DNA of 54,411 nt from NCBI GenBank assembly GCA_947588275.1, contig CANPYJ010000005.1:1-54411 (forward strand). Reading direction: 5' to 3'. Shown piece after piece: positions 1 through 18,500 of this stretch. Position 1 is the stretch's first letter. Each line of letters begins with the position of its first letter. The stretch comes from an uncultured Alphaproteobacteria bacterium. Its GTDB lineage: Bacteria; Pseudomonadota; Alphaproteobacteria; RF32; CAG-239. The notes beneath the pieces were generated by a model. That model did not search any database, was not told where the DNA came from, and saw only the letters and a program-made list of their open reading frames with translations. The translations under genes and the position numbers were made by a program.

Positions 1-141
1 CTAAACATCACGCCGGACACACCGGTAGATCTTTCGGAAGATGGTATTTTGATGGTCTTTATTAAGGCAATCATACGACATGAGAACGGCATACAACCAT
101 ACTCTAATGAAACTCTCTTGAAAGGAATACGAATGTCATGA
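1..141 (+). CDS. C-terminal part of a phage structural lysozyme / P5-like muramidase (truncated by window start)
   Basis: Frame 1 is open from base 1 to TGA 139-141: ...MVFIKAIIRHENGIQPYSNETLLKGIRMS*, resembling the C-terminus of P5-like phage lysozymes. It overlaps the next ATG (ATGA). Confidence 0.55.
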   Translation, partial: LNITPDTPVDLSEDGILMVFIKAIIRHENGIQPYSNETLLKGIRMS

Positions 142-356
142 AAAAGCGGCTTTGGATCCCGGTCCTCGGGTGGATTCTGTGTTACGGGTTCCTCCATAAC
201 TGTTTGATCGCACCTATAACGGGTCTTCCGGTAGTGGACTGGGAGTATTTATTAACGGCCATGGGCATTTTACTCGGTGTAAGTGGCGCACGAGATATTG
301 GATTAAAGGAAAGGCAAAAACAAGATGTTGAACAGAATAACAAAACTTTGGAATAA
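138..356 (+). CDS. phage holin-like protein (3TM family-like)
   Basis: 72 aa, hydrophobic segments, GWILCYGFLHNCLIAPITG motif typical of 3TM holins; directly after the lysozyme end. Confidence 0.6.
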   Translation: MKKRLWIPVLGWILCYGFLHNCLIAPITGLPVVDWEYLLTAMGILLGVSGARDIGLKERQKQDVEQNNKTLE

Positions 357-546
357 GGGTAAATACTGGATAATCGCCGGAGCGGTGGCCGTCTTATATA
401 TGCTCGGCTATCGGCACGGCAAGGAAAAAGAACAAGTTAAAGTAATGAAAGGAACGGTGGACAATGTTAAAACAGCTAAAAAAAGTCGGGACAGCCTGGC
501 TGATCCTGAGCGCGCTAAGCGGTTGCACAACAAATATAAACGGTGA
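325..546 (+). CDS. Rz-like i-spanin candidate
   Basis: Single N-terminal TM (YWIIAGAVAVLYMLGY) followed by a charged tail; overlaps the holin end and the next lipoprotein ORF, as in Rz/Rz1 pairs. Confidence 0.5.
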   Translation: MLNRITKLWNKGKYWIIAGAVAVLYMLGYRHGKEKEQVKVMKGTVDNVKTAKKSRDSLADPERAKRLHNKYKR

Positions 547-658
547 TTTTTGCCTTTTATACGAACCGGTGTATGCAGATTATGAGCACGACACCCCCGA
601 AACTGTCCGTCAAATTGATAGAAACAATGTGGTTTACGATGATTTATGTACAAGATGA
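464..658 (+). CDS. Rz1-like o-spanin lipoprotein candidate
   Basis: Lipobox-like LILSALSGC near the N-terminus; overlaps the i-spanin ORF in another frame; CLLYEPVYADYEHDTPETVRQIDRNN resembles small phage lipoproteins. Confidence 0.5.
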   Translation: MLKQLKKVGTAWLILSALSGCTTNINGDFCLLYEPVYADYEHDTPETVRQIDRNNVVYDDLCTR

Positions 659-666
659 AGCAGACT

Positions 667-698
667 CCGCAGGAACAAAAACCTGCGGGGCTCTTTTT
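667..698 (+). terminator. Rho-independent terminator after lysis cassette
   Basis: CCGCAGG-aacaaaaa-CCTGCGG followed by ggctcttttt. Confidence 0.75.
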
Positions 699-2433
699 AA
701 TCAAGTTCTTTTAAATAATCGTTTACCATATCTGTCAAAAGTTGACGCCGTTTTGCTATAAATTCAGGATATTTACTTATATTCCAAAGGCTTTGATCTG
801 TTGGAATACAATGCTTTTTGAAGTTTTCTTCGCCTTTTTTGACAAGAACTTCTGGCAGATATACAGCTGGATCATCATTTTTAATCAAAACATTCGTGCG
901 TTTTACAATAAAGGTTTGGTTAGCAATGTCATTTATTTGATCACGCTCGTATTTTCCTTTTAAGAAATCCTGAGGGAATATATGGTGAAATTCAATTTGA
1001 TTGCGGTTTGCAACGTTATTCATGCTTAAAACTTGAGGTGTATTCCAGTCCAATGCGCCATTATGTCTCATGACTGTAAACATAGTTTTGAAAATGCCAC
1101 TGGCTGTGTTTTTATTTTCAAAATCTGTTGTATGGAAATCAAGTCTGCCGAATTGCATTTTAAGGTTATCCAATAACCCCTGTAAGTTATTGTTTTTGAT
1201 AGCATACAGATCTTGATCCAAAATTGTTTCAGATGAACCTCTTGAATAACGACCTTTTGCATTTGCAATGAGGAACCACTTTTTGATTATTTTTGCCTCG
1301 TTATCCGTAAGAATATTGTTTTTCATGTGGTACAAGAATGAAAGCGATACGATAAAGTACGGTGACGACAATGTCGCATCAGTTTCAAGACCAAACGTAT
1401 TTTTTAGCTCATCCAATGTATGTTCAAGAGCTTTTGTTACTTTCGGCCAAGCGCCTTCCAAATCCTCTTTTGTTAATGACGGCACAATCTTAAATTTTGA
1501 TTGCGATGTCAATATAGCAACAAGTGTTCTGACGATGATGCCTGTGCTGATATCCCAACCATGTTTTTCACAGTTTTCGGCTTCTTTATTGAATTTTATT
1601 AAGGCACCTTCGTTAATTCCCTCCGCTGTTTCAATAGTTGGCCATTTGGCTGTAATTTGCGCTAAAGCCAAATCAGAACCTTTTAGTTTTGTGCCGGCAG
1701 AGTTTACGCGCACAAAAATTTCAGTGACTTCTTCATATGACATACCTGCAGGAAGAGTTTTTACTTGGAAGTCGTAATTTTCTATATTTTTGAGAGCTGT
1801 AAAACGATCCATATATTTCTTTAAACGTTGCTCTCCTTCAGGGGTTTTAATGTCGCCGGCTCTTTGCATAATGTCGGTAACCGATACTTTATTAGCAAAA
1901 ACACCTGCAACAGAAATCCAATTTTGTTGGCTTTTTACAAGCGGGTTTTCAACCACAAAAGCACGACGATTTAAATCATCAAGACGGCTTTTATTTTCTT
2001 CCTCATCTGAAGTAATCTTGATATCATCATCTTCTTCAAACTCTGTTTTATTATCATCATCAGTAGCAACTTTTGTATTTTCCAATTTATCTGGGTGATC
2101 AAGATTAAAATAGATATCAATGGCACGTTTTCTTCCACGTACATTGACAGGCTCGCCGCAAAGGATTGCTTTGAGAGAGGTCAAGCGTTGTTGGCCATCT
2201 AATAACAGATAGTAGGACTCATATTTCGTGTCATCCTGAGAAACCGCAAAATCACGTGTCGGAACCTTTTGTGTTGTTTCCCATCTTAAAATGGTACCAG
2301 TCGGATATTTTCTATACAGAGAATCAAGTAAATCTCTTACTTGTGTAGACTTCCAAACATATGCACGTTGCATTTCCGGAAGACGCATTCTGTTGGATTT
2401 AATTTCATCAATAAGAGTTCTAATTTCAGTCAT
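697..2433 (-). CDS. DUF262 domain protein with HNH-like C-terminus (GmrSD-like)
   Basis: 578 aa; N-terminal LPEMQRAYVWKSTQVRDLLDSLYRKYPTGTILRWE and LLLDGQQRLTSL (DUF262 ParB-like); C-terminal NQIEFHHIFPQDFL (HNH/DUF1524-like). Confidence 0.8.
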   Translation of the reverse strand: MTEIRTLIDEIKSNRMRLPEMQRAYVWKSTQVRDLLDSLYRKYPTGTILRWETTQKVPTRDFAVSQDDTKYESYYLLLDGQQRLTSLKAILCGEPVNVRGRKRAIDIYFNLDHPDKLENTKVATDDDNKTEFEEDDDIKITSDEEENKSRLDDLNRRAFVVENPLVKSQQNWISVAGVFANKVSVTDIMQRAGDIKTPEGEQRLKKYMDRFTALKNIENYDFQVKTLPAGMSYEEVTEIFVRVNSAGTKLKGSDLALAQITAKWPTIETAEGINEGALIKFNKEAENCEKHGWDISTGIIVRTLVAILTSQSKFKIVPSLTKEDLEGAWPKVTKALEHTLDELKNTFGLETDATLSSPYFIVSLSFLYHMKNNILTDNEAKIIKKWFLIANAKGRYSRGSSETILDQDLYAIKNNNLQGLLDNLKMQFGRLDFHTTDFENKNTASGIFKTMFTVMRHNGALDWNTPQVLSMNNVANRNQIEFHHIFPQDFLKGKYERDQINDIANQTFIVKRTNVLIKNDDPAVYLPEVLVKKGEENFKKHCIPTDQSLWNISKYPEFIAKRRQLLTDMVNDYLKELD

Positions 2434-2449
2434 TTTACATCCTTAAATA

Positions 2450-2950
2450 CTATTTTTTATTAGCATAATGCTTTTTAAAAAGTTCGACAGCTTGTTCTGT
2501 CATTTCTTTTACATCATAGCCTGAAGATATTATATTGCTTGAAATAATTCCTTCTTCGCTTGGGGCTGTCGCTATTTTTTGAAATCTCACGGTAATTTCT
2601 TCTAATACTTCTTTCTCAGCATCTGGTGCATAATTTACTAATAAGGATGCTTGACATACCTTGCTACCCTTAAAATCTTCGTATAATTTAACTTTCATTA
2701 ATTCTGGAATAGTGTTGTATTCCATCACGCCTTGAACATCAACTACTTTTACAGGATGTTGTTCAGCACGCTTGTCAGCTTTAATAAGGGCTTTGTTTAT
2801 CCAGTTAGTATAAGTATCTTTCAACGAATCTTGATTATATCCACAATGTATAACATCCTCATTTTGTTGGATATTACTTCTTTCTCCGAAGAAAAAACCT
2901 ACAAATAGAGACAATACTGCTAATGCAATTATACTCGCTGTATTTTTCAT
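2450..2950 (-). CDS. hypothetical membrane-anchored/secreted protein
   Basis: 166 aa with N-terminal hydrophobic segment IIALAVLSLFVGFFFG; 17 bp from the DUF262 gene, same strand. Confidence 0.6.
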   Translation of the reverse strand: MKNTASIIALAVLSLFVGFFFGERSNIQQNEDVIHCGYNQDSLKDTYTNWINKALIKADKRAEQHPVKVVDVQGVMEYNTIPELMKVKLYEDFKGSKVCQASLLVNYAPDAEKEVLEEITVRFQKIATAPSEEGIISSNIISSGYDVKEMTEQAVELFKKHYANKK

Positions 2951-3044
2951 TTAAAGCCCCTTTCGTTTATATAAATAAAATTTTTCACAGTATATCCGTT
3001 GATGATTTAAAATTCAATAACACAATTTTATATTTCATCATGAT

Positions 3045-3641
3045 TTAAATTTTTATCTGTTTTATAAACTCTCTTAATGTATCCCGGTCTACGTGCAATT
3101 GTTTCGCTATTTTGGTTTTACTAATGCCTTTATTCAATAAAGTTTTGATAACATTTTCTTTTCCAGTTAATTTTAGTTGCTTGTTTTTTGTACCTAAAGG
3201 TCTTCCCAAAGTTTTTCCTGCAGCACGACGTGCAGCTAGAGCTTCTTTTGTACGCTGAGAAATCATCTTACGTTCAATTTCTGCAGATAATCCGAATGCA
3301 AATGCTAATACTTTGCTTGAAATGTCATCTCCAAGTTTATAATTGTCTTTAATAGTCCACACGCGTGCATCAGTATCCAATAATTTATTCAGCATTCCCA
3401 TCACCTGTAACAAATTTCTACCTAATCTAGATAGCTCACTTGCAATTATAAGATCATCTTTTTTTATTTTTTTTATTAACTTTCCTAATTTTCGTTTATT
3501 TAAATCGGCGGTTGAACTTATTGTTTCCTCTATCCATTCATCGATATAAAGGTTATTTCTTTTACAAAATTCCTCTATTTCATAATGTTGATTTTCTGTA
3601 GTTTGCTTATCTGTTGAAACGCGAATATATCCGTATATCAT
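3045..3641 (-). CDS. serine site-specific recombinase (resolvase/invertase, Mpi/Hin-like)
   Basis: MIYGYIRVSTDKQ (catalytic Ser), ELSRLGRNLLQV, AEIERKMISQRTKEAL, C-terminal HTH ISKTKIAKQLHVDRDTL. Confidence 0.9.
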   Translation of the reverse strand: MIYGYIRVSTDKQTTENQHYEIEEFCKRNNLYIDEWIEETISSTADLNKRKLGKLIKKIKKDDLIIASELSRLGRNLLQVMGMLNKLLDTDARVWTIKDNYKLGDDISSKVLAFAFGLSAEIERKMISQRTKEALAARRAAGKTLGRPLGTKNKQLKLTGKENVIKTLLNKGISKTKIAKQLHVDRDTLREFIKQIKI

Positions 3642-3686
3642 TTTGTATTCCTTTCTTTAAACTGTATGATAAATCTGCGGTATAAT

Positions 3687-3763
3687 AACGGTCGTATAAA
3701 TTCCGCAGAAACACCGTTTAAAATTCCGGATACATGGATGTGGGTAAAATTAGGAGATATTGC
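3687..3763 (+). repeat. outer inverted repeat IR1, left copy (77 bp)
   Basis: Exact reverse complement of 6259-6335, aligned by eye base by base. Confidence 0.93.
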
Positions 3764-4163
3764 GGATCTATATACAGGTGATAGTATTCCTGAATTAGTA
3801 AAAACAACAAAATATACGAATATAGAAACTGGCTATGATTACATTGGAACTAAAGATGTTGGTTTTGACAATATGATAGCGTATAATAATGGTGTAAAAA
3901 TTCCTTATGATGAAAAAGGATTTAAATATGCTTATGACACATCAATTTTACTTTGTATTGAAGGTGGCAGTGCTGGTAGAAAAATTGGAAAATTAAAAAC
4001 AAAAGTTTGTTTCGGCAATAAATTGTGCGCGATAACACCTTTCGGCTTTGATAACTCTTATTTGTATTATTTTTTACAGTCAGATTTTTTCCGCTTCATG
4101 TTTAATGAGCAAAATAGCGGTATCATTGGTGGAGTAAGTATAAAAAAGATGTTTGAGCTTTCT

Positions 4164-4505
4164 ATTCCTTTACCACCGTTGGCAGAACAAAAACGGATAG
4201 TAGAGAAGATAGAGGAATTGGAACCACTGATTAATCGGTATGGAAAAGCGTCGGAAGAATTGGCTCGTATAAAATCCGCATTTCCGGAAGATTTAAGAAA
4301 TTCTATTTTACAACAGGCTGTTGAGGGAAAATTAGTGCCACAAAACCCTGCAGACGAGCCCGCTGGCGAACTATTGAAACGAATTAAACAAGAGCGCCAA
4401 CAGCAAATTAAAGAAGGAAAAATTAAGCCGTCTAAATTGCCGAAATCAAACGAGCCTTTAAATCCCGCAGATATGCCATTTAAAATACCTGATTCCTGGA
4501 TATGG
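4164..4505 (+). repeat. inner inverted repeat IR2, left copy (342 bp)
   Basis: Reverse complement of 5517-5858 with one mismatch seen (aagCcgtct vs aagCTgtct); encodes the central conserved region. Confidence 0.92.
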
Positions 4506-5003
4506 CAAAGATTAGACAATGTAGGAATATACAAGAAAGGACCTTTTGGAAGTTCGCTAACGAAGGGTATATTTGTTGAAAAATCTGATAATACAGTGAA
4601 AGTTTACGAACAGAAAAATGCAATATATAAAGATGAAAAGTTGGGTAATTACTATATTACAAATGATTATTTTGAACAAAAGATGAAAGGATTTGAAGTT
4701 TTTCCAGGTGATATTATTGTTAGTTGTGCAGGAACAATAGGAGAAACCTTTGTTCTGCCTGATAACATGGAAAAAGGCATTATAAACCAAGCTTTGATGA
4801 AAATAAAAATTAGCAACTATATATATGTTCCTTATTTTCTTGTATATTTTGATTTTATAATTAAAGAAACATCTTCCAATCAAAGTAAAGGTTCGGCTAT
4901 AAAAAATATTCCACCATTTGATATTTTTAAGCAACTGCCAATTCCCATACCACCATTGACGGAGCAAAAGCGGATAGTCAAAAAAATAAAGGACTTAGAC
5001 CTG

Positions 5004-6497
5004 TTAATTAATAATTTGTTCGAGCTTATTGCTTGAATCCATTAAATTTTCAACCTTTTTCACGATTTTTTTCTGTTCATTATATGGTGGCATAGGAAAG
5101 GGATATGTCGCAAAAATATCACTTGGAACACGCTGTTGTCCTGCCGTTCCGGTCATATTATTGCTTGCATATTTCATAAAAAAAGGACTTTTAAGATAAA
5201 TTAACACATAGTAAGGATTTATATTAATGCCTCTAAATACATGCAATTCCGTTGTTCCTGCTCCATAACCATTAAACAAATTATGTAAAACAGACGATTT
5301 TTTATTTTCAAAACAAGGTGTTATTTTTGCCATAATTACATCACCATCTTTTAGATGTGTGTAGCCAGATTTTACATCCTTCCATAATTTCTTTTCATCT
5401 ACATTTACAGAAACATTATATTTAGATGAAATTTTATCCATTGGAATAAAGGAAACTTCTAAATTATCTTCTATAACATTTCGTGGATTAATTAGACCGA
5501 TTTCTGACAGAGACGTCCATATCCAGGAATCAGGTATTTTAAATGGCATATCTGCGGGATTTAAAGGCTCGTTTGATTTCGGCAATTTAGACAGCTTAAT
5601 TTTTCCTTCTTTAATTTGCTGTTGGCGCTCTTGTTTAATTCGTTTCAATAGTTCGCCAGCGGGCTCGTCTGCAGGGTTTTGTGGCACTAATTTTCCCTCA
5701 ACAGCCTGTTGTAAAATAGAATTTCTTAAATCTTCCGGAAATGCGGATTTTATACGAGCCAATTCTTCCGACGCTTTTCCATACCGATTAATCAGTGGTT
5801 CCAATTCCTCTATCTTCTCTACTATCCGTTTTTGTTCTGCCAACGGTGGTAAAGGAATCATGAGATTATATAAACTAGATGAATTTAGCGTTTTTCCCTT
5901 AATCGCCTCTTTTGTATCCGTCGTCAATGTAGTTAAATAAGGCAGAACCTTATATAAATATTTAGTTGTATTTTTCTCTATATCTATAAAAGGGAAAATG
6001 GATACTATGGCCTCATTATGAAAAGCATCCATTCCTAATATCGAAACTTTACCTATAGTTAATTTAAAACTCATGAGCAAAGTACCTTGTCGCGAAATTC
6101 TATTCTTAAATACCTCTATATTGGCCTTTTCTGATACTCCTTCTTTTGTTGAATTAATTACTTCTCCATCTATCAAATCAGCAATAGATACCCAAGGATA
6201 ATTTTTTTCCCAATATTCAAAATCGTTGCGTGATGGTGTTTTTCCCATAGGAAAATCAGCAATATCTCCTAATTTTACCCACATCCATGTATCCGGAATT
6301 TTAAACGGTGTTTCTGCGGAATTTATACGACCGTTTTTTTTCTGCGATTTTATTTTTCCTTCTTTAATCAGCTTATTCTTTTCAGCTTGAATCCGCTCAT
6401 ACAGTAGGCTTGCCGGTTCGTCTGACGGATCTTGTGAAACGAGACGACCAGATATTGCGAGCTGCAGTATAGAATTTTTAAGATCAATTGCTTTCAT
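5004..6497 (-). CDS. hsdS: type I restriction-modification specificity subunit (expressed copy)
   Basis: 497 aa with full N-terminal region, two TRDs, and conserved PLPPLAEQKRIVEKIEEL / PPYNEQKKIVKKVENL; abuts hsdM. Confidence 0.93.
   Translation of the reverse strand: MKAIDLKNSILQLAISGRLVSQDPSDEPASLLYERIQAEKNKLIKEGKIKSQKKNGRINSAETPFKIPDTWMWVKLGDIADFPMGKTPSRNDFEYWEKNYPWVSIADLIDGEVINSTKEGVSEKANIEVFKNRISRQGTLLMSFKLTIGKVSILGMDAFHNEAIVSIFPFIDIEKNTTKYLYKVLPYLTTLTTDTKEAIKGKTLNSSSLYNLMIPLPPLAEQKRIVEKIEELEPLINRYGKASEELARIKSAFPEDLRNSILQQAVEGKLVPQNPADEPAGELLKRIKQERQQQIKEGKIKLSKLPKSNEPLNPADMPFKIPDSWIWTSLSEIGLINPRNVIEDNLEVSFIPMDKISSKYNVSVNVDEKKLWKDVKSGYTHLKDGDVIMAKITPCFENKKSSVLHNLFNGYGAGTTELHVFRGININPYYVLIYLKSPFFMKYASNNMTGTAGQQRVPSDIFATYPFPMPPYNEQKKIVKKVENLMDSSNKLEQIIN
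5517..5858 (-). repeat. inner inverted repeat IR2, right copy (342 bp)
   Basis: Reverse complement of 4164-4505; encodes PLPPLAEQKRIVEKIEELEPLINRYG...PFKIPDSWIW. Confidence 0.92.
6259..6335 (-). repeat. outer inverted repeat IR1, right copy (77 bp)
   Basis: Exact reverse complement of 3687-3763; lies at the start of TRD1 in hsdS. Confidence 0.93.
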
Positions 6498-7970
6498 TTA
6501 ATTTATTCCTAATATTTTTTTAATTTGAGTAATTACTTCCGACATTTCAGTTTCTAACGCGGCTTTTTGTTGTTCAAACTGTTCAAACAGCTCCTTTGGT
6601 TCCAGTATAACGTTTTCTATCGTTGGATAGCCGCAAAGATCTAAATTAAAATTCCTAGTTTTCAATTCTTCAAATGAATATTTTTTCGCTTTATCAAAGC
6701 CATCTTCTTGAATTTCTTGTCTATTATTCCACCATTCTCTAACAGGATCAAAGTGTTCTAGTTGCATCGGTTTTGTTTTATTAAAAGCTTTTATGCCCTC
6801 AGGCATGTCTAATCTATAGAACCATGTTTCTTTAGTTTGACCTTTTTTATCAAAGAACAGAAGGTTTGTATTAATGCTAGTGTATGGCGCAAAAACGCTT
6901 TTTGGTAATCTGATGACCGTATGTAAATTACATTTTGTGAGTAATTCTTCTTTAATGCGAGTTTTAGCACCACCTTCTCCGAATAGTGCGCCGTCAGGTA
7001 GAACCATAGCGCATCTTCCTGTATTTTTAAGCAGTTTAATAATAAGTACTAAAAACAGATCGGCTGTTTCTTTTGTCCTGACATGTGCCGGAAAATTAGA
7101 TTCTATTCCATCTTCTTCTTCGCCGCCAAATGGTGGATTAGTCAGAATTATATCTACCTTATCTTTTTCAGAATAATCACTTAATGGACGAGCCAAACTG
7201 CCGTTTATAAAGTGTTTAATATTTGGTGCGTCTATTCCGTGTAAAATCATATTTGTTGTACAAAGAATATATGGAAGCTGTTTCTTTTCCCAACCCATAA
7301 TACAGTCGTGTAGCGTATTAAAAGCTTGACCTGTTTTTAATTGAGGATTTAGATACTTAACGGCAGAAGCCAAAAATCCGCCAGTACCGCATGCTGGGTC
7401 TAAGATTTTCTCGCCTAATTTTGGAGCCGTCATTTCCACCATAAACTGAGTAACAGCACGTGGAGTATAGAACTCTCCAGAATGTTTATTATTTTGAAGG
7501 TCTTTTAATAATTGTTCATAAATATCCCCAAATAAATGTTTGTCGGTCCCTTTATTAAAATCAATTTCATCTATCTTATTGATAACCTGACGAAGTAATT
7601 GTCCAGATTTCATATAATTATGAGTATCTTCAAAAACAGATCGGACCATAGCAGCATTTGGATCAGAAATATCTAATTGTTTAAGTCCAGGGAACAGTTC
7701 TTTATTTACAAAATCTAGCAACTCTTCGCCAGTTATACCTTCATCATTCTCTGCCCATGAAGACCATTTTAATTTTTCGGGAATTGGAGATACGTAATCA
7801 TCGTTGATAAGAATATTTTCTTTTTCTCTATCGGAAAAGATTTTTAAAAATAGCATCCAAGTAAGTTGTCCCAGTCTTTGAGCATCGCCATCGACGCCAG
7901 GGTCTTTACGCATAATTTTTTGAATGGATTTTACAATTTGGCTTACATTTGACATTCTATTTGCCTCCAT
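6498..7970 (-). CDS. hsdM: type I restriction-modification methyltransferase subunit
   Basis: FYTPRAVTQFMVEMTAPKLGEKILDPACGTGGFL and NPPFGG (N6-adenine MTase motifs I and IV). Confidence 0.95.
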   Translation of the reverse strand: MEANRMSNVSQIVKSIQKIMRKDPGVDGDAQRLGQLTWMLFLKIFSDREKENILINDDYVSPIPEKLKWSSWAENDEGITGEELLDFVNKELFPGLKQLDISDPNAAMVRSVFEDTHNYMKSGQLLRQVINKIDEIDFNKGTDKHLFGDIYEQLLKDLQNNKHSGEFYTPRAVTQFMVEMTAPKLGEKILDPACGTGGFLASAVKYLNPQLKTGQAFNTLHDCIMGWEKKQLPYILCTTNMILHGIDAPNIKHFINGSLARPLSDYSEKDKVDIILTNPPFGGEEEDGIESNFPAHVRTKETADLFLVLIIKLLKNTGRCAMVLPDGALFGEGGAKTRIKEELLTKCNLHTVIRLPKSVFAPYTSINTNLLFFDKKGQTKETWFYRLDMPEGIKAFNKTKPMQLEHFDPVREWWNNRQEIQEDGFDKAKKYSFEELKTRNFNLDLCGYPTIENVILEPKELFEQFEQQKAALETEMSEVITQIKKILGIN

Positions 7971-10326
7971 ACATCAAACGTTCTAATTTTTCTATAGTAT
8001 TTAAATATTCTTCATTACCGCCGATTTTTCCAAATAATTCTACAGGCCTACCGAACTTTTTCTCAAAATCTGGGGTTTCTAAAGTTTTTCTATCTTCAAA
8101 CGCATAAATTCCGAATTCTACATACTTAGATAATACATCAATATAAAAATCTTTCTTTCCATCAGGTAGTTGTGCTAAAAATTCTTTACAAAAATCAGCA
8201 CGTTGAAAACGCGTTATAGGTTCAATATCGTAAGTATTTTTAAGAATTATATCAAAAATATCAATATCTGCTGGATATATAGCCTTTAATTCTTTTATAA
8301 TTAAACCCTCATCAATCAAATGTTTTATAAAAGCCGTCTTCTTACGAGCCCCCGTCCATGCAGACCGAAAAGAATCCTCCGTATCATATCGTTTCAATAT
8401 GAAATTTTTATAATAATCCTGTATATTCTCGCTTATAAGCTTTCCATTTTCATCTAACCACTGAACTCTTTTGTCTACAATAGATACAGGAACATCATCA
8501 ATTACATATTTATTATTTTGTGGTTCTTCATCAATAACTTCACCACCTTCCCATTCTCCTTCTGATATTTCTTCTGGATCTTCTTCTATAGTCCATTCAT
8601 CCGGTTCATCGTTTGGTTCTTCAACATCAGCACCAGCTACAACTTTTATTTCTGTCGGATAACCATCAAATTCTGGATCTGCGAATAATTTTGTCGCCTT
8701 ACGAAAATCCATGATAGTGAAGTAATATTTCTGATATTCTTCATTTACACGCGTTCCTCGGCCTATAATCTGTTTAAATTCTGTCATTGAGTTTACTGTT
8801 CTATCAAGGACAATCAACTTACAGAGCTTTGCATCTACACCAGTTGTCATAAGTCGAGACGTAACAGCAATAACCGGATATTTTTCATCCAACGCAATAA
8901 AATTATCTAACTCTTGTTTCCCTTCTAAATTGTCACCGGTAATCTGCATAACATACTTACTATTCTCTTTCATCAGATCATCGGCAACCTTTGCTATAGC
9001 ATTTCTCATTCGCATAGCATGATTAATATTTTCACAAAAGATAATTGTTTTTGCATATGGATCATTTTCACGCAGAAATTTTATAACACATTTTGCCACA
9101 CATTCTGTTCTAGCATTGAGTATTATATCTTTATCGTAATCTTTTTCCGTATATTCCTTATCAGGAATCTCATTACCATATTTATCCAATTTTCCAAATT
9201 CTGGTCTCCACCCCAAGTCCTTATCTAATATTACCCTCATTACTTTATAAGGAGCGAGAAAGCCATCAGCGATACCTTCTTTTAAGGAGTATGTATAAAT
9301 AGGTTTACCAAAATACTGACTTGTAGAAATATCTCTATCTTCTTTTGGTGTGGCGGTCATACCTATTTGAGTTGCTGAACTAAAATATTTTAGAATTTCA
9401 TGCCATGATGAATTTTCTTTGGCAGAGCCACGGTGACATTCATCAACAATTATTAAATCAAAGAAATCTTGAGAAAACTGCTTATATATATTTTTCTCTT
9501 CTTCTGTTCCCGTTACTGCTTGATACAGAGATAAATATATTTCATAAGCCTTATCAACGCTCCTATTTTCTATCTTTGTCATAGCATTACCAAATGGTGC
9601 AAAATCTTGGACTTTTGTCTGATCTATTAAAATATTCCTATCAGCCAAAAATAAAATACGTTTTTTTTGCTTAGATTTCCACAAACGCCAGATAATCTGA
9701 AATGCAGTATAGGTCTTTCCTGTTCCTGTAGCCATCACTAAAAGAATACGCTTTTCACCGCGAATCACCGCTTCTACAGTTTTGTTAATAGCATTTCTCT
9801 GGTAATATCTTGGTTCTTTACCAGAAGTATCTACATAATAATCTGATAAAATATTATTACCTTCTGTTTGGGAAATTTGTTTCGCTTGCTTATATCTTTC
9901 CCACAATTCTTCAGGTGTCGGGAACTCGTTAATTGCTAATTCTCGTTCTTTTCCTGTTAGAAAATCATGTTCATAAAAACCTTTACCATTTGAGCTATAT
10001 GCAAAAGGAACATTCAAACATTCTGCGTATGCCATACCTTGTTGTAATCCATCACTCACATCTTTATGAAATTTTTTTGCTTCTACAATTGCTATAGGAA
10101 AATTCGGCTTATAAAAAAGCAAATAATCAGCTTTTTTTCTTTTACCTTTGCGGATTTCTTTATCTTTTACCATTATTCTGCCATTAGTGAATAGGTACTC
10201 CATTCTTATTTGGGTTTCAGAATGCCATCCTTTATTAGTAATAGCAGGTGTAATCTCGATACGTTTTGTATCTTCCTCAGATAAATTTTTATATTTTACA
10301 TAAACATCATTCATAATGTTTTCCAC
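7957..10326 (-). CDS. hsdR: type I restriction endonuclease subunit
   Basis: Walker A VMATGTGKTYTA, DECH box IIVDECHRGS, TATPKEDRD, N-terminal nuclease-like region ADYLLFYKPNFPIAIVEAKK. Confidence 0.94.
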   Translation of the reverse strand: MENIMNDVYVKYKNLSEEDTKRIEITPAITNKGWHSETQIRMEYLFTNGRIMVKDKEIRKGKRKKADYLLFYKPNFPIAIVEAKKFHKDVSDGLQQGMAYAECLNVPFAYSSNGKGFYEHDFLTGKERELAINEFPTPEELWERYKQAKQISQTEGNNILSDYYVDTSGKEPRYYQRNAINKTVEAVIRGEKRILLVMATGTGKTYTAFQIIWRLWKSKQKKRILFLADRNILIDQTKVQDFAPFGNAMTKIENRSVDKAYEIYLSLYQAVTGTEEEKNIYKQFSQDFFDLIIVDECHRGSAKENSSWHEILKYFSSATQIGMTATPKEDRDISTSQYFGKPIYTYSLKEGIADGFLAPYKVMRVILDKDLGWRPEFGKLDKYGNEIPDKEYTEKDYDKDIILNARTECVAKCVIKFLRENDPYAKTIIFCENINHAMRMRNAIAKVADDLMKENSKYVMQITGDNLEGKQELDNFIALDEKYPVIAVTSRLMTTGVDAKLCKLIVLDRTVNSMTEFKQIIGRGTRVNEEYQKYYFTIMDFRKATKLFADPEFDGYPTEIKVVAGADVEEPNDEPDEWTIEEDPEEISEGEWEGGEVIDEEPQNNKYVIDDVPVSIVDKRVQWLDENGKLISENIQDYYKNFILKRYDTEDSFRSAWTGARKKTAFIKHLIDEGLIIKELKAIYPADIDIFDIILKNTYDIEPITRFQRADFCKEFLAQLPDGKKDFYIDVLSKYVEFGIYAFEDRKTLETPDFEKKFGRPVELFGKIGGNEEYLNTIEKLERLMYGGK

Positions 10327-11261
10327 ATCTTTCTTTCATCAAAATCTTCCGGTTGAATGACCTTTACATGTTTACCCCATGTGTAAAGATGCCAATCCAT
10401 TTCAAGTGCGCCACCGGCACGGAATTTTACGGTTAAGGTACCGTCCGGATTGCGGATTGCTTCTTGCCTCGGATGAAATGTATATTGAGCCGCGGAATCT
10501 GCAACTTCTGCATCAAACAGCCATTCAACATCAAATGGTTTTTCTTGGTAAACCCCAAAGGCTTGTTCGCTGAATTCCTTAAGCGAGAAATGAGGATCGC
10601 GCTTGAAGTATGTATTTAAGACTTCAATTTCCTTGATTTTATTCAGGTTAAAGTGACACATCTTGCGCTTTGTTGGATTCCAAGCAATAAGGTAGTGTTT
10701 ATTTCCATACAAAAAGCCATAAGGGTACAACTCGCGCCAGTCCTTGTTGTGCGCAGAATCATATTTTATTTTAATGCGGTTGCACGCAATAATTGCGTAC
10801 CTGAGTTGTTTTAAGTGCTCGGTGTTGATGATAATCTTTGGTCCGGGCCGGAAAGCGTAACCTTCAGCTTCCAAAAGTGCTTCGGCATCCGGTTCGATCC
10901 TGTTTGTGGCATCTTTACCGATGATGGCTTTTATTTTATGTAAAACAGTATCAACGTAGTGCGCATCTAGTATACTTTTTGTTGCCAAAAGTTTTGAAGC
11001 ATTTTGCAAGGCGTGGATCTCTTCCATAGAAAAATTGACCATTTCGCGGCCGGTCCCCTTAGGCAAATACCAACGTTTTGTATTATAACGACCGTTAATT
11101 TCTTTTAATTGAGGGTATTTATCGGCGATGGAATCTTTCATACGAACCGCTGTCCGGAGAGAGACATCATACTTTTCCATGATGTCTTTAAGAGAAACGC
11201 CGTCATCTGTGTCCTGCATCCACAAAATCAGGTCATTGAGCGTCTGCGTTTTTTTATACAT
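10311..11261 (-). CDS. WYL-domain HTH transcriptional regulator
   Basis: 316 aa; N-terminal HTH, central WYL-like REL YPYGFLYGNKHYLIAWNPTKRKMCHFNLNKI; overlaps the hsdR start by 16 bp. Confidence 0.85.
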   Translation of the reverse strand: MYKKTQTLNDLILWMQDTDDGVSLKDIMEKYDVSLRTAVRMKDSIADKYPQLKEINGRYNTKRWYLPKGTGREMVNFSMEEIHALQNASKLLATKSILDAHYVDTVLHKIKAIIGKDATNRIEPDAEALLEAEGYAFRPGPKIIINTEHLKQLRYAIIACNRIKIKYDSAHNKDWRELYPYGFLYGNKHYLIAWNPTKRKMCHFNLNKIKEIEVLNTYFKRDPHFSLKEFSEQAFGVYQEKPFDVEWLFDAEVADSAAQYTFHPRQEAIRNPDGTLTVKFRAGGALEMDWHLYTWGKHVKVIQPEDFDERKMWKTL

Positions 11262-11370
11262 GTTCCGGCTCCATTCTTACTTTAGCTGGCACATTATACT
11301 CGATTCTTTTTTCAAATGTCAATATGGACATGACAAAAATTGGCAGGAATTTTAAATTTCAAAAAAGCAA

Positions 11371-11583
11371 TTACTCATACAGCCCTTGTTCAATGCAAGG
11401 TTCTTTTACGAATGGGTTCGGGTTTCCTTGGATTTCCTCAATACGCTTGGCTCGGGTGCATTCCCATGGTGTGACCAGATATCCTAGCCACGATGGGCCA
11501 TCGTGACGGGCTATGCTATACCCGATGTTAACAACAAACGCAAGGGATTTGTGAATTTTTTCGACAACTCCTGCGCTGGACAT
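11371..11583 (-). pseudogene. C-terminal remnant of an endonuclease I (EndA-like) gene
   Basis: Translated TPWECTRAKRIEEIQGNPNPFVKEPC resembles the EndA C-terminal WECxRxxRIxxxQGNxNPxV signature; the ORF is only 70 aa and lacks the catalytic part. Confidence 0.55.
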
Positions 11584-11727
11584 CTACATTTTACTGGCAG
11601 ACATCCCCACCGGAATTAGAATTATACAAATAAAAAAAGGATTACAACCGCACCAAGGCAAACAGAAGTCAAAAAATGGCACAACGAGGCTGTATCATGT
11701 CAAAAATTGTCAGAGTTTAGATTTTTT

Positions 11728-11973
11728 CTACCAATCTCGTTCTTCATCTTCGCGTTCCCAACTCAGATTTCCATGTTCATTTATGGAATTGCGTTGGCCG
11801 TCATCGTAATTATCGCGCTCGATCTCTCCGGATCGGATATAATCTTCTGCGGTGGGTTCTTGATTAAATGGACTGCGCCTTCTTGGTTGTTCGTTTGATT
11901 GATTCATAATTCCAAAAAACAATTCACTAAAAAATCCCATAATAATGTTCCTTTCTTGGTTGTGCAGAGGCAT
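11728..11973 (-). CDS. hypothetical small protein
   Basis: ORF with likely start at the internal MGFFSELFFGIMNQ after an aggaac-type RBS. Confidence 0.4.
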   Translation of the reverse strand: MPLHNQERNIIMGFFSELFFGIMNQSNEQPRRRSPFNQEPTAEDYIRSGEIERDNYDDGQRNSINEHGNLSWEREDEERDW

Positions 11974-12087
11974 TATATCAGAAAAATTATCTCAAAGCAA
12001 AAAATAAAAAATATGTGATGACAGTTTATGGCATAACATTGTAATTTTATATTTGCATTTTTAAATTGAAACGGCTAAAATACAAAA

Positions 12088-12109
12088 CGCTCGTTATAAA
12101 GAACGAGCG
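12088..12109. promoter_or_regulatory. perfect 8-bp-stem inverted repeat upstream of druH-like gene
   Basis: CGCTCGTT-ataaag-AACGAGCG, ~15 bp before the ATG at 12125; no U-tract. Confidence 0.5.
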
Positions 12110-12124
12110 AATAAGGACTTTTTG

Positions 12125-15100
12125 ATGCTATTGGTTGAAAATGTTTTGCATGAATTTTTAAATGATTTCTTAAATAAAAGAAATCTTCCGTTCCCCGATG
12201 GACGGATGCTTTATGCATATCAGATGAATCAACGTGAATATCTTGAATTAAAAGAAAAACTTAATGAACTCTGTCAAAATGAAGAATTAGTTGATTTATT
12301 AAGGAATAAAGATTTCTCAAGATGTTTTGTTTTGTATGCTTCAGAGTGGTGGAAACGTGAATACAGCGGTGGCGTTTGGTCCTGGGAACCTATATTTAAA
12401 ACCATCTCTAATGATGAAATAAAAACCCATCAAGTTCAGGTTAGATCAAGAGCTATTACAGAAGCTCTAGAGTATTGGAAATACCGCAATTCACTGGCAA
12501 CAGGAAAAAAATTCTTAGGTGCTATTATTGCCAATGGTGGTCTTCCTTCAAAATTTATGCAATCTGACAAGTATTCATCTATTGTTAGAGTCTTGCGCGG
12601 AATTCTAAGGTTTGCCGGCGAAAATAATGCTAATGATAATGAATTATTTATGCGCACAAAAGAAGCAGTAAAAAAACTGCCGGAAGCAATTAGAAAAGAC
12701 GAAATATGTGAGTTAATAGCAAATTTAGTCAGTACAATTATTAAATTAAAAAGAGATTATGAACTTGAAAAAGAAACGCACCCAGTTCAAATCCTCAATC
12801 AACGTTGTCCTTCATGGAAAGAACAATTTCCTTTATTAATGGAAGATGCTTCTGTTGAAAAAATGCTCGTTGGGTTTGTTGAAGAAGCGAGTAGAATAAA
12901 CAGAAACAATGTAAGAGGTAAAATTCCATCCGTAGATCGAATTTTTGATTTTTCTGAATCTGATCAATTAAAATTTTTATTTACTTTTCCTGAATTTGAT
13001 GTCTCAGCCGCGTATTTTTCAAAATTTTTTGAAATTTCCAATGCCGAGGAATTGCCACAAACATTTTATATCAATAATTTAGACCTGAAAAATACTACAG
13101 TTGCCATTGTTACAATGCAATTAGGCTCTAGAAAAAAATACAAAATCAAAAAGTTTGATAATAGACTAGATAATGTCCTAAATTCAGTGACAATTTCTCT
13201 GTCATCAGCAGATAACAAAATACACTCGAAATTAGTTACAATATCAGAAAAACTTGATATCAATGCACCTTTCGTCTTTATAAAAAACGACGATGATACA
13301 TTAATTTTGAAAAGTAACGGAAGTACATATTTAAGAGAAAATGAATGTTATATTGCATATAAACCAGGCATTTTTGATCTATCTGAATTTGGAACGCTTG
13401 AGCGCACTGTGCATATTGGTAATAGCGAATTGCCTTTGATAAAATGTACTTCGGATATCGAAACGGAACAGTTCTTCGTAAAGCTGAATGCTTCTAATCC
13501 GTCAAATAATAAGTATTGTTTGGACGGTAATATTATATCTTACAAGGCTTATCCTCATGTTGCATATAAAGGTGTGCCTGAAGTGGTTTGTTATGATGAA
13601 GATGGCAAACGCGTTACAATTGCATCAAAGTATATTACCTATTACCACAAGGGGACTAATCTTCCTATCACTGATATTCAAAATTTTTCGGGAACTGTAG
13701 ATATTCATTGTAACCATGGGGATATAGAAAGAGTTTATACGGTCACTATATTCCCGGCGGATCTTGAAATAAAATTTGATGTAAGTGATGGGGAATACAT
13801 AAAATTCAGTGATATGAATTGTATAAAAATTTTGCCTGTCGTTGATAAAAATGTCCAGTTCACTGAAATAGCTAAAAATGAGTTCAAATTTCATTATTTA
13901 GGCCAAAAACCTGATAAAGTATGCTTTAAAATTTATTGGTACAGTGGTGGCACATCTTTCATTTACATTCCATATCCGTGTATGGGTGTTTCATTTTTTG
14001 ATGAAAACGGAAAGTGTATAGATCTTTTTAACATTTCTATACTGCATCTAATGGGTAAAAAAATCAAAATTTATAACAACCTAACGAAATCTGAAAAATA
14101 TAAATTAGTTTTTAAATTAGAAAGAGCAAATAAAAAAGGAAAACAAGTAGAAAACTCTCGCCCAATATTTACTTATGATTCATTAACAGAAATTAAATTA
14201 ATTGACTTTGAAGACAACATTAAGAATTTACTTGGGTATTCTGATGACGAAAATGATTTAATCAAAGTTTCCGTACAGCTTAACAATAAGGAAATGGGGT
14301 TCATTAGAATTTCTCGCTATGATACCTATTTCGTTTTAGAAAATAGCACCATTTCTATACCAAGTGATCAATTTAGAATTTATTCTAATGAAATGTTAAA
14401 GAATACAAATGTAGTAGCAATTAATTTGCTTGATCCAGAAGTTCCTGTAATCCCGCTAGCTCAAAATACTGACAGTGGTATATTTACTGGATATTGGAAC
14501 ATTGAAAATCTTGATTCGTCCGCAAATACTTACATGATAACATCTGATCAAAAATCAGATATATCTATTAAACCTTTTATTTTATGTAAAGATAAGGCTT
14601 TTGAAAGTTTATCTGATTTTCACAAAAAAATTATAATATCAGATATTGTATCGGTAAATAGCGGTTCGACAATTACTTGCTCCTCAGATGATTTGGAGAC
14701 GTATTTAATAAGCGGACTTCATTCTTATAAATCAGAATTGTGGAAAGATATTGGGGATTTGAAGCAAGTTTTTGCCACTCAGAATATTTCTTTAACCGCT
14801 CTTAAATTATGGCAGGTTCTATGTTCCAATGAATTCCTGTTGGCAAGACTATTATTGTTCTGTTCCTCGGAACGAATCATTATGCAGAAAATAAGAGATG
14901 AGCTTATCTCTGTCCCGGCCATCATCTCTTTTGCTACATGGGAAGCGGCTATAACTGAATATTTACAATATTTGCGTGAAGCTTTTGCAAAAATTCCAGG
15001 TATGGAATCGATGCTGAAAAGTATGATATCAGAACAATTTAAGGTTCTGACCGATACATTTCCCGAAATCGAGGTAACTGTTTACTATTTACTTTTCAAA

Positions 15101-15589
15101 ATAAGCTGTAATTTTACAGACATGATTGAATTTAATTGTATAATTCCTCATGTAGGAAAAGCAATTAATTTTACTGAGCAACAACTGAGTGATGAAATTT
15201 TTACAAAAAATAAGTATGATGAGAACGATGAAATTGAAGAATTGTGCTGGATGCAGACATTGCAGGCACAAAACTCATTAGAAGAGGATAATTGGATTCC
15301 TTTGCCTTTCCCTCAGCTATACCAAGAAATACAAAGCATGTATCCTCAAGAACTATCTAATCTTGCTTCATATTTATTTAAGCTCAATAAGTTTTCGTAT
15401 TTTATTGAATATGTTGTTAATTTTCCACAGCTTTGTGCTTTTTATGCTTTCTATAATGCAAAAAGTCGAGATGAAATTCGTAATTTAATGAAATTTTCTA
15501 TAAAAGATTTTATGAATTTTAACCAAAATTATTTTATAGAGGTTTATAAAATAGCAATATCAATTATGTTAAGAAATTCAACCAAATGA
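12125..15589 (+). CDS. druH: DruH-like protein (STY4851/ECs_5259-like), Druantia type III candidate
   Basis: ~1154 aa; YASEWWKREYSGGVWSWEPIFKTI motif near the N-terminus; directly precedes a ~2000-aa DUF1998-type helicase with an 8 bp gap. Confidence 0.7.
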   Translation: MLLVENVLHEFLNDFLNKRNLPFPDGRMLYAYQMNQREYLELKEKLNELCQNEELVDLLRNKDFSRCFVLYASEWWKREYSGGVWSWEPIFKTISNDEIKTHQVQVRSRAITEALEYWKYRNSLATGKKFLGAIIANGGLPSKFMQSDKYSSIVRVLRGILRFAGENNANDNELFMRTKEAVKKLPEAIRKDEICELIANLVSTIIKLKRDYELEKETHPVQILNQRCPSWKEQFPLLMEDASVEKMLVGFVEEASRINRNNVRGKIPSVDRIFDFSESDQLKFLFTFPEFDVSAAYFSKFFEISNAEELPQTFYINNLDLKNTTVAIVTMQLGSRKKYKIKKFDNRLDNVLNSVTISLSSADNKIHSKLVTISEKLDINAPFVFIKNDDDTLILKSNGSTYLRENECYIAYKPGIFDLSEFGTLERTVHIGNSELPLIKCTSDIETEQFFVKLNASNPSNNKYCLDGNIISYKAYPHVAYKGVPEVVCYDEDGKRVTIASKYITYYHKGTNLPITDIQNFSGTVDIHCNHGDIERVYTVTIFPADLEIKFDVSDGEYIKFSDMNCIKILPVVDKNVQFTEIAKNEFKFHYLGQKPDKVCFKIYWYSGGTSFIYIPYPCMGVSFFDENGKCIDLFNISILHLMGKKIKIYNNLTKSEKYKLVFKLERANKKGKQVENSRPIFTYDSLTEIKLIDFEDNIKNLLGYSDDENDLIKVSVQLNNKEMGFIRISRYDTYFVLENSTISIPSDQFRIYSNEMLKNTNVVAINLLDPEVPVIPLAQNTDSGIFTGYWNIENLDSSANTYMITSDQKSDISIKPFILCKDKAFESLSDFHKKIIISDIVSVNSGSTITCSSDDLETYLISGLHSYKSELWKDIGDLKQVFATQNISLTALKLWQVLCSNEFLLARLLLFCSSERIIMQKIRDELISVPAIISFATWEAAITEYLQYLREAFAKIPGMESMLKSMISEQFKVLTDTFPEIEVTVYYLLFKISCNFTDMIEFNCIIPHVGKAINFTEQQLSDEIFTKNKYDENDEIEELCWMQTLQAQNSLEEDNWIPLPFPQLYQEIQSMYPQELSNLASYLFKLNKFSYFIEYVVNFPQLCAFYAFYNAKSRDEIRNLMKFSIKDFMNFNQNYFIEVYKIAISIMLRNSTK

Positions 15590-15596
15590 GAAAAAC

Positions 15597-18500
15597 ATGA
15601 AGACAAACAGTTACAGCGAACTTCTTAAAATTTTACCTGTTCAATCAACAGAAGCAATAATGAGCACATTGTCAATTTTGCCTCTAGACTTACGTGAATT
15701 CTTGAGAAAGAAATTTTCGGAAGAAGGTGATAAGTTTGTCGCTGATCCTGTATTTGAGCCTATGTTCAGTTATAAACCAAGCCAACAAACTTTCGGTGAA
15801 TTAAGTGGAAAGTTGTTGCCTAGGTCATTTGTTAATGCATTACATGGGGCTAGTGAGTATAGATTTGATAAAAGCATGTACCCGTATCAACATCAATTAA
15901 CCTCATGGGAAACATTATTAAATACGAATAATTCATTGGTTGTATCAAGCGGGACAGGCTCAGGAAAGACGGAATGTTTTATGATTCCTATTATCTCTGA
16001 TTTAGTCCAACAGGTTGAAAAAACAAATTCTGTGCTTGAAGGTGTGCAGGCCTTGTTTATTTATCCATTGAATGCTTTAATTCAAAACCAAAGGGAGCGT
16101 TTTAGTGAATGGACTAAACCTTATAAGGGGAATATTCGGTATTGTTTATATAATGGTTTATTGCCACAACAAACGAGGGAATCGGAACAAAAGGAGACTG
16201 TGGAAGAAGTTGTTGATAGAGAGCAATTATGGAAATCTCCATCTCCATTGTTAATTACCAACACCACCATGTTGGAATATATGCTTATTCGCGCAAACGA
16301 CAAAAGAATAATTGATAAATCAAAAGGAAAATTAAAGTATATCGTTTTAGATGAAGCGCATACCTACATCGGTTCGCAAGCGGCAGAATTATCCCTTTTA
16401 TTAAAAAGGGTTATGGATGCTTTTGAAGTTAAGCCTGAACAGGTTAAATTTATAGCAACATCTGCAACCATAGGTGATAATGATGCAGGCACACAATTAA
16501 GACGTTTTCTTTCCAGTATTTCGGGTGTAAATGAAGAAAACGTTACTGTTGTGTTCGGTAAAAACGAAATAGAGCCATTAGCCTCATCAACAGCCGGCAA
16601 ATCAATTGATGAAATTGAAAAAATAGAAAACCCGGATGAAATTATAAAAGAATTACGAAATAATAAATTAGCTTGTTCTTTAAGATCATTTTTTATTTCT
16701 TCGAATAATGAACACGGGGTGGCGAGGACCTTAACCGAAATATGCAATAATTTTAATTTAACATCTGATCTTGCTTTAAGATGGTTGGATTTACTATCTG
16801 TAACACCTGTAAACGAAAAGAGTTTTTTGCCGCTCAGACTACATATTTTTCACAAAACATTTCCCGGATTATGGTCCTGCTGTAATCCAAATTGTACTTG
16901 CAAGGATAATATCCCGGGGTGGAAATTTGGAAAGATATATTTTAAGGAGCAATGTAAATGCGAATGCGGTGCTCCTGTTTTCCGCGTAAAAGCTTGCGCT
17001 AACTGTGGCGAACCATTTCTTGAAGCAAAAATTAACGATAGCGCAAAGGATGGGAAAAAATACCTGTATCCAACGATGCTTCAAGATATTGATGAGTTTT
17101 CTCTTGATGATGACGACAACTATATCAATGATGTTGAAGCACACACCGTTTGGGTCGAGAATTTCGAAAAAGATAATGACACGGCTTGTTATTTGAATAT
17201 AGAAGATAGCTCACTATCTTTGGCGAATAGTAATGGAATAAGATTAAACGTTTTTGAAGATTATGAGGACATTCATTGCTGTGATGCTCCGGAAGTTGAT
17301 CAGATAAAATCATTCATTCCTTTGCAAGGTGCTCCATTTGTTTTGAGCCATGTTTTGCCGACATTGTTAAATTATGCTGAGATAGCAAAAGATTCAGAGT
17401 CTAAACCACATGCTGGCCAAAAAATGATTTGTTTTACGGACAGCCGTCAAGGCACTGCTAGATTGGCTGTTCAGTTACAACAAAACTCTGAACGTAACTC
17501 CTTCAGAAGTATTTTGTTGCACGTGATTGCACATATAGAGGCTGAAAACAATAAAAACAATAATGCTGATCAGATTAATACATTAAAAGAAGCATATAAA
17601 AGTACAAAAATGCCTCAATTACTGGATATGATAAAGCAATTAGAAGGACAAAAAGGAAGTTCCTTTGCAAACGAAAACAACGTCATAAGCGATATCTTGA
17701 AAGAATTTGACGATAATGACCTCAAATGGATATACAACTATTACCGGGACAAAGATTCAATATTTGACACAAATAGAGGTCAAGGTAACCTGATTGAAAT
17801 ATTGTTTGCACGAGAATTAATCAGAAGGCCGAAAAAGGCAAATAACGTTGAAACATTAGGTTTACTAGCAACTGCTTATGATTTTAGCAAAATTACAAGT
17901 GTGCCTGCAAGTATTAGTAAGTATTTCACATGCGATGATTGGAAAAATTATCTTAAAATTGTGTTGGACTTTTTTGTGCGTGCCAATGGCTTTGTTGAAT
18001 ATCCGGAGAATTGGGACAAATGGGGGGCTATCAGCAAAAATAATGAACCATTGGATTTTGATCACTGGCCTAAAGCTGATAAGAAAAAGAAAAATAGAAA
18101 CATTGTTAAATTACTGTTTTATGCATTAGATATGGACCAAACTAATGACTACCATATTGATATAGTAAACGAAATAATGAAAGAAGCTTGGTTAGCTCTA
18201 ACTTCTGCAACAGGCATTCTGACCCCGTCAGCCAATCAGATCTACCGAATGAAAATGGATAAAATAGGATTAAGGCGATTACAAAAAATTTACGTCTGCC
18301 CGATAACCAATAAGGCTCTTGATGTAACATTTAAGGGGTATTCTCCTTATTTATCTAGAAAAAATAGAGGCGAATCTAAAGAAATAACTCTAGAGAAATG
18401 TAAAGAGTATTCGTTTCCAACCTACGATTACAGTAAAGAAAGTGGAAAATCGTACGATGAATGCGTTTTAATGAGGAGAGAATGGTTAGAAAATAATGAT

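What the first reader, a model, noticed from the sequence alone, without database searches (positions are those of the whole stretch)
3666..6497. Invertible type I R-M specificity locus: two hsdS cassettes tail-to-tail with two nested inverted-repeat pairs
Full-length hsdS (6497-5004, minus) faces a 5'-truncated hsdS cassette (3666-5036, plus). IR1 (3687-3763 / 6259-6335) is 77 bp and exact. IR2 (4164-4505 / 5517-5858) is 342 bp with one mismatch seen. IR1 ends where TRD1 begins and IR2 ends where TRD2 begins, while the TRDs themselves differ. Inversion at IR1 swaps TRD1+TRD2; inversion at IR2 swaps only TRD2. This predicts four HsdS proteins (2 x TRD1, 2 x TRD2), i.e. an epigenetic phase-variation switch. 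Multi-inversion hsdS loci are known in other bacteria (streptococci, Mycoplasma, Bacteroides); this locus in this lineage may be undescribed.
Basis: partly seen in the sequence, partly recalled or inferred. Interest (0 to 1): 0.92.

Follow-up and report, generated by a model that had tools for sequence, protein, structure and literature searches.

The report
Invertible DNA-methylation specificity switch with invertase
A gut-type alphaproteobacterium carries a DNA-flipping switch that can reshuffle which sequences its type I restriction-modification enzyme recognises; a second genome of the same species carries the flipped form, and the gene next door encodes a serine-type "Mpi" flipping enzyme, unlike the tyrosine-type enzymes in the other switches of this kind that I found described.

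Summary
In detail: hsdS (5004-6497, minus) faces a 5'-truncated hsdS (3666-5036, plus), with an exact 77-bp IR1 and a 342-bp IR2 (one mismatch, 4429). All four predicted HsdS forms are open (497/503/503/497 aa). Inversion is supported directly. Contig CALXUD010000048.1, from another MAG of the same species, carries exactly the IR1-inverted product: 0 mismatches over window 3600-4240, against 277/477 for the window's own form. The gene 24 bp from the silent cassette (3045-3641) is an Mpi-family serine invertase (NF009949). The motif ACGNNCGTATAAATYC occurs twice in the own genome, once in each IR1 arm. In two other genera a relative of the same Mpi clade is linked to the same motif at hsdS genes of a different type I family (one locus complete, one inferred from two contig ends). 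Both IRs share CGTATAAAWTCCGC, found nowhere else in the 1.39-Mb genome, with different predicted central dinucleotides (GT, CT). Known hsdS invertons in the papers I read, and three others in this family, use tyrosine recombinases. Verdict: a real phase-variable type I system of known architecture with an unusual recombinase. IR2 inversion, methylation changes and recombinase activity are untested.

The parts
3045..3641 (-). mpi: master DNA invertase Mpi family serine recombinase, 198 aa; predicted invertase of the locus
   Evidence: NF009949 303.6 bits vs cut-off 272; Pfam Resolvase 111 bits; YxRVST...SRLGR catalytic motifs conserved in an 8-row alignment
3666..5036 (+). 5'-truncated hsdS cassette (TRD1-B + TRD2-D), lacks the first ~47 aa; presumed silent
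5004..6497 (-). full-length hsdS (TRD1-A + TRD2-C), presumed expressed, directly downstream of hsdM
   Evidence: Methylase_S; PADLOC Specificity_I 380 bits
3687..3763 (+). IR1, silent arm (77 bp exact)
6259..6335 (-). IR1, active arm
4164..4505 (+). IR2, silent arm (342 bp, 1 mismatch)
5517..5858 (-). IR2, active arm
3688..3706 (+). predicted Mpi crossover site in IR1 (ACG-GT-CGTATAAATTCCGC)
   Evidence: ACGNNCGTATAAATYC occurs only in the two IR1 arms in this genome and beside hsdS/mpi in G095 and G028
6316..6334 (-). predicted Mpi crossover site in IR1, active arm
4261..4279 (+). candidate second crossover site in IR2 (TGG-CT-CGTATAAAATCCGC), different predicted central dinucleotide
   Evidence: CGTATAAAWTCCGC occurs 4 times in the genome, exactly the 4 IR arms; the left half is degenerate
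5743..5761 (-). candidate second crossover site in IR2, active arm
5859..6258 (-). TRD1-A (between IR1 and IR2, active gene)
   Evidence: sequence; found in the silent position in L106
3764..4163 (+). TRD1-B (silent)
   Evidence: sequence
5004..5516 (-). TRD2-C plus C-terminus (active)
   Evidence: sequence
4506..5036 (+). TRD2-D plus C-terminus (silent)
   Evidence: sequence
6498..7970 (-). hsdM
   Evidence: N6_Mtase, HsdM_N
7957..10326 (-). hsdR, EcoAI/FtnUII family
   Evidence: NF046051 1046 bits vs cut-off 550
10311..11261 (-). WYL-domain regulator directly upstream of hsdR (likely operon regulator, inferred)
   Evidence: PF13280

Best explanation
A phase-variable (inverting) type I restriction-modification locus. 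The Mpi-family serine invertase encoded at 3045-3641 recombines short sites inside the IRs. Inversion at IR1 exchanges TRD1 and TRD2 of the expressed hsdS with those of the silent cassette; inversion at IR2 exchanges TRD2 only. The hsdRMS operon can thus express four HsdS specificities in turn, changing restriction and methylation targets within a clone. Shown here: the IR anatomy, four open hybrid reading frames, and the IR1-inverted configuration in an independent genome of the species. Inferred: that Mpi catalyses IR1 inversion (site motif plus linkage in further genera), that IR2 inverts (by Mpi or by homologous recombination), that the silent cassette is not expressed, and that methylation changes.
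For: Anatomy. CALXUD010000048.1 (L106) joins the mpi-side flank to TRD1-A exactly at IR1, with 0 mismatches to the predicted inverted form. It ends 77 bp into IR2, as a short-read assembly would at a repeat with two contexts. Mpi family membership with catalytic motifs intact. ACGNNCGTATAAATYC has 8 hits in 157 family genomes; 2 are the IR1 arms, 2 are the arms of a second hsdS/mpi inverton (G095, L043), 2 are the ends of two contigs of G028 that carry hsdS TRD1 and mpi. The three linked Mpi fall in one clade of four, support 100/99, in a tree of 64 proteins. CGTATAAAWTCCGC is unique to the four IR arms in 1.39 Mb, about 0.02 expected, reversed control 0.
Against: Only one alternate form was seen, in one short-read MAG contig; a misjoin at a 77-bp repeat cannot be wholly excluded, although the join is exactly the predicted one. 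IR2 inversion was not seen. The left half of the IR2 candidate site is poor, and 342 bp is ample for RecA. Recombinase activity, expression and methylation could not be tested. No structure model could be obtained.
Confidence: 0.84

Rival explanations
1. The same switch, but Mpi is a bystander: inversion at both IRs is by homologous recombination (RecA or RecA-independent) between 77- and 342-bp repeats.
For: IR2 is long; in pneumococcus the 298-bp IR2 and 85-bp IR3 invert without PsrA or any other recombinase tested (PMC4948785). Most Mpi relatives in this bacterial family are not beside hsdS.
Against: An Mpi-type site motif lies in both IR1 arms and nowhere else in the genome; the same motif and Mpi clade flank hsdS in other genera, with only a 16-bp exact repeat in G095.
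Confidence: 0.15
2. IR1 inversion by Mpi, IR2 inversion by homologous recombination (mixed mechanism; a sub-case of the best explanation).
For: Parallels the pneumococcal locus, where only the 15-bp IR1 needs its recombinase; the left half-site in IR2 is degenerate.
Against: IR2 carries the same 14-bp half-site as IR1, found nowhere else in the genome.
Confidence: 0.4
3. A degenerate duplicate: the inverted hsdS copy is a relic, identity is kept by gene conversion only, and no switching occurs.
For: Only one orientation is seen in the window's own assembly.
Against: The inverted form is present in a second MAG of the species; all four reading frames are intact and the invertase gene is intact.
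Confidence: 0.04
4. Assembly artefact: collapsed or misjoined strain variants produce a false inverted duplicate.
For: The window is a MAG contig, and repeats are where misjoins occur.
Against: Both cassettes have distinct TRDs and intact frames, the contig spans both IR pairs, and a second MAG shows the same IR1 and an IR2 entry point at the same base.
Confidence: 0.03

Closest known systems
Streptococcus suis and similar four-allele inverting type I systems (Atack et al. 2020, PMC7394358)
   Same: Two hsdS genes in opposite orientation, IRs before TRD1 and between TRD1 and TRD2, four predicted alleles, recombinase gene in some loci
   Different: Here the adjacent recombinase is an Mpi-family serine invertase. 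The host is an uncultured alphaproteobacterium; the survey was of REBASE genomes, and the passages I read name no alphaproteobacterial case
Pneumococcal Spn556II/SpnD39III cod locus with PsrA (PMC4948785)
   Same: Short and long IRs (15, 298 and 85 bp) mediate hsdS inversions; recombinase encoded at the locus
   Different: PsrA is a tyrosine recombinase acting on a 15-bp IR; three hsdS genes
Bacteroides fragilis hsdS shufflons (PMC3090145)
   Same: Invertible hsdS TRDs in a gut bacterium
   Different: Four IR sets, eight products, tyrosine integrases adjacent
Bacteroides fragilis Mpi (Coyne 2003, as summarised in PMC4747536)
   Same: Recombinase family; serine invertase acting on short inverted sites
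   Different: [quoted passage not shown] here the site motif is confined to one locus and lies inside coding sequence
   Same: hsdS with facing truncated cassette (complete in G095), divergent mpi next to it, ACGACCGTATAAATCC sites
   Different: Different HsdR/HsdS family; the site lies between TRD1 and TRD2 (KRPYKS codons), so only TRD2 would swap

Membership tests
Inverting (phase-variable) type I R-M system | hsdR and hsdM with duplicated, distinct hsdS genes | tested here: met
Inverting (phase-variable) type I R-M system | Inverted repeats upstream of TRD1 and between TRDs | tested here: met
Inverting (phase-variable) type I R-M system | Alternate configuration observed | tested here: met
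   IR1 form in CALXUD010000048.1, one contig; IR2 form not observed
Inverting (phase-variable) type I R-M system | Changed methylation specificity and phasevarion | not testable with these tools
   needs a methylome
Mpi family serine invertase (NF009949) | Score above the curated cut-off | tested here: met
   303.6 vs 272 bits
Mpi family serine invertase (NF009949) | Serine recombinase catalytic motifs | tested here: met
   R7, S9, S71-R72, G74-R75 invariant in the aligned relatives
Mpi family serine invertase (NF009949) | Acts on short sites with a 2-bp centre | tested here: inconclusive
   Motif shared with other Mpi loci; no cleavage assay
Mpi as 'master' (multi-locus) invertase | Sites at many loci in the genome | tested here: not met
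   ACGNNCGTATAAATYC occurs only in the IR1 arms of the own genome, so this looks like a dedicated enzyme; looser sites not excluded
Tyrosine-recombinase hsdS inverton (PsrA/CreX/HvsR type) | Tyrosine recombinase at the locus | tested here: not met
   No tyrosine recombinase seen among the listed ORFs of 1-16000; the adjacent gene is a serine recombinase

The most novel reading that the evidence does not exclude
One dedicated Mpi-family serine invertase runs both nested switches, with different central dinucleotides (GT in IR1, CT in IR2) insulating them from each other. The same enzyme clade has been joined to unrelated HsdS families in different genera, each time using a site embedded in the HsdS coding sequence: a serine-recombinase class of type I specificity switch parallel to the tyrosine-recombinase class.
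Probability: 0.4. Interest if true: 0.65.

Novelty: new variant of a known kind. Interest (0 to 1): 0.5.

Why it matters
Phase-variable type I systems change defence and gene regulation across a clone. Finding one run by a serine invertase in a little-studied gut lineage would extend this enzyme family from promoter switching to protein-domain switching. It also gives a compact testable model in which central dinucleotides keep two nested inversions apart.

Tried and rejected
My first scan of 60 Mpi loci with the window's own HsdS as query found no second case; it missed divergent HsdS, and a motif and profile search then found G095 and G028. Mpi next to a type I locus in G113 (L122) and in G109 (L123) was looked at and set aside: no inverted repeats in the first, and its own tyrosine recombinase in the second. 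Viral contig searches for the hsdS cassette and for IR sequences found nothing. The other half of the locus was not found in the CALXUD MAG. Rfam: no hit in the window. The two remaining motif hits (G114, G117) lie in unrelated genes. One pattern choice, the W in CGTATAAAWTCCGC, was made after seeing both sites, so its p-value is optimistic.

Full report
1. Observation. hsdS 5004-6497 (-) and a truncated hsdS 3666-5036 (+) overlap tail-to-tail. IR1 is 77 bp exact and IR2 342 bp with one mismatch at 4429. The proteins are identical over the IR-encoded segments except the residue at that mismatch, and unlike in the TRDs. Flipping the sequence in silico at IR1 (3687-6335), at IR2 (4164-5858) or at both gives open HsdS proteins of 503, 503 and 497 aa carrying B-D, A-D and B-C, against A-C (497 aa) in the window.

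2. The system. hsdM 6498-7970 and hsdR 7957-10326 lie upstream on the same strand. HsdR belongs to the EcoAI/FtnUII family (1046 bits, cut-off 550). A WYL-domain protein precedes hsdR. HsdS matches solved S subunits (best 1yf2, E 9e-27).

3. The alternate form exists. A scan of 85,462 species genomes with the HsdS protein returned one contig, CALXUD010000048.1 (L106; uncultured Alphaproteobacteria, isolate BRZ_CV__bin99). It is 99% identical to the window over 3.7 kb including mpi. After IR1, where the window has TRD1-B, it has TRD1-A. Against the in-silico IR1-inverted form it has 0 mismatches over window 3600-4240; against the window's own form it has 277 of 477 after IR1. It ends 77 bp into IR2, which is what a k=77 assembly graph would do on entering a repeat from two contexts (inference; the contig name has SPAdes format). 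The flank 2-3686 differs at 38 of 3685 positions, so this is a different strain. The remainder of the locus was not found in that MAG. One contig from short reads is not proof of switching within a clone, but it is exactly the predicted product.

4. The likely enzyme. The gene at 3045-3641, divergent from the silent cassette and 24 bp from it, is an Mpi-family serine recombinase (NF009949, 303.6 vs 272 bits; PDB matches are DNA invertases and resolvases). Serine recombinase motifs are intact. Mpi genes are common in this bacterial family: 122 of 157 genomes, five copies in this one.

5. The site. Several Mpi loci in the family have 14-17-bp inverted repeats about 100 bp apart with half-sites like CGTTTAT around a 2-bp centre, for example ATAAATG-TC-CGTTTAT in this genome's C13 paralogue. 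IR1 begins ACG-GT-CGTATAAATTCCGC. With no mismatch, ACGNNCGTATAAAT occurs in the window only in the two IR1 arms. In 157 genomes ACGNNCGTATAAATYC has 8 hits (13 for the reversed control, so the total is not an excess); six lie at three hsdS/mpi loci. In G095 the two hits lie in a 421-aa hsdS and in a facing 220-aa truncated hsdS beside mpi. In G028 one hit ends a contig carrying hsdR, hsdM and the TRD1 half of hsdS, and the other ends a contig carrying mpi; the two ends share TGACGAAAATAAACGACCGTATAAATCC. That G028 is one locus split by its repeat is inferred. The other two hits are in unrelated genes. The three linked Mpi and one orphan (G119) form a clade with support 100/99 among 64.

6. 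IR2. CGTATAAAWTCCGC occurs four times in the 1.39-Mb genome, once per IR arm (about 0.02 expected). In IR2 the sequence is TGG-CT-CGTATAAAATCCGC, with a poor left half. If it is a site, its centre differs from IR1's (CT vs GT), and in serine invertases mismatched centres block productive exchange (established knowledge of Hin/Gin), which would keep the two switches apart. Homologous recombination over 342 bp is an equally good account.

7. Comparison. The two-IR, four-allele layout is that of Atack et al. 2020 (PMC7394358). Recombinases named in the papers read are tyrosine type: PsrA and HvsR (PMC4948785) and B. fragilis integrases (PMC3090145). B. fragilis Mpi is known as a promoter invertase (PMC4747536). 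Searches of the open-access library for serine recombinase with hsdS or type I specificity found no description of this pairing; subscription papers are not covered. [quoted passage not shown]

8. Verdict. A real, very probably active specificity switch of a known kind with an unusual recombinase class: new variant of a known kind.

Noticed in passing
12122-21608: Druantia type III genes DruH (1155 aa) and DruE (2003 aa, PADLOC 1945 bits) beside the type I locus; with a GmrSD/HEC-05-like gene at 697-2433 this is a defence island.
   Followed up: partly
L106:1-2590: The contig of the second MAG continues left of the window into phage tail and lysozyme-like genes, so the island abuts a prophage or prophage relic.
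   Followed up: no
L167:819-5624 (Lactococcus cremoris pJM1F): An Mpi-family invertase lies divergent from an inverted TaqI-like specificity cassette facing an N6 methylase, with 20-23-bp inverted repeats: the same geometry in a different R-M type.
   Followed up: partly
L170:5001-10582 (Prevotella nigrescens plasmid): Mpi gene followed by Eco57I-type methylase fragments facing an N6 methylase; possible further Mpi-linked R-M switch.
   Followed up: no
[quoted passage not shown]
   Followed up: partly
L052:678-708, 2124-2154, 4227-4254: Three copies of a 28-31-bp repeat (two inverted relative to the first) next to an Mpi gene in G111; a possible multi-site inverton.
   Followed up: no
G000:C13, C12, C3, C1: Four further Mpi paralogues in this genome; the C13 one has a 16-bp inverted repeat pair 111 bp apart beside the gene, like a promoter inverton.
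   Followed up: partly
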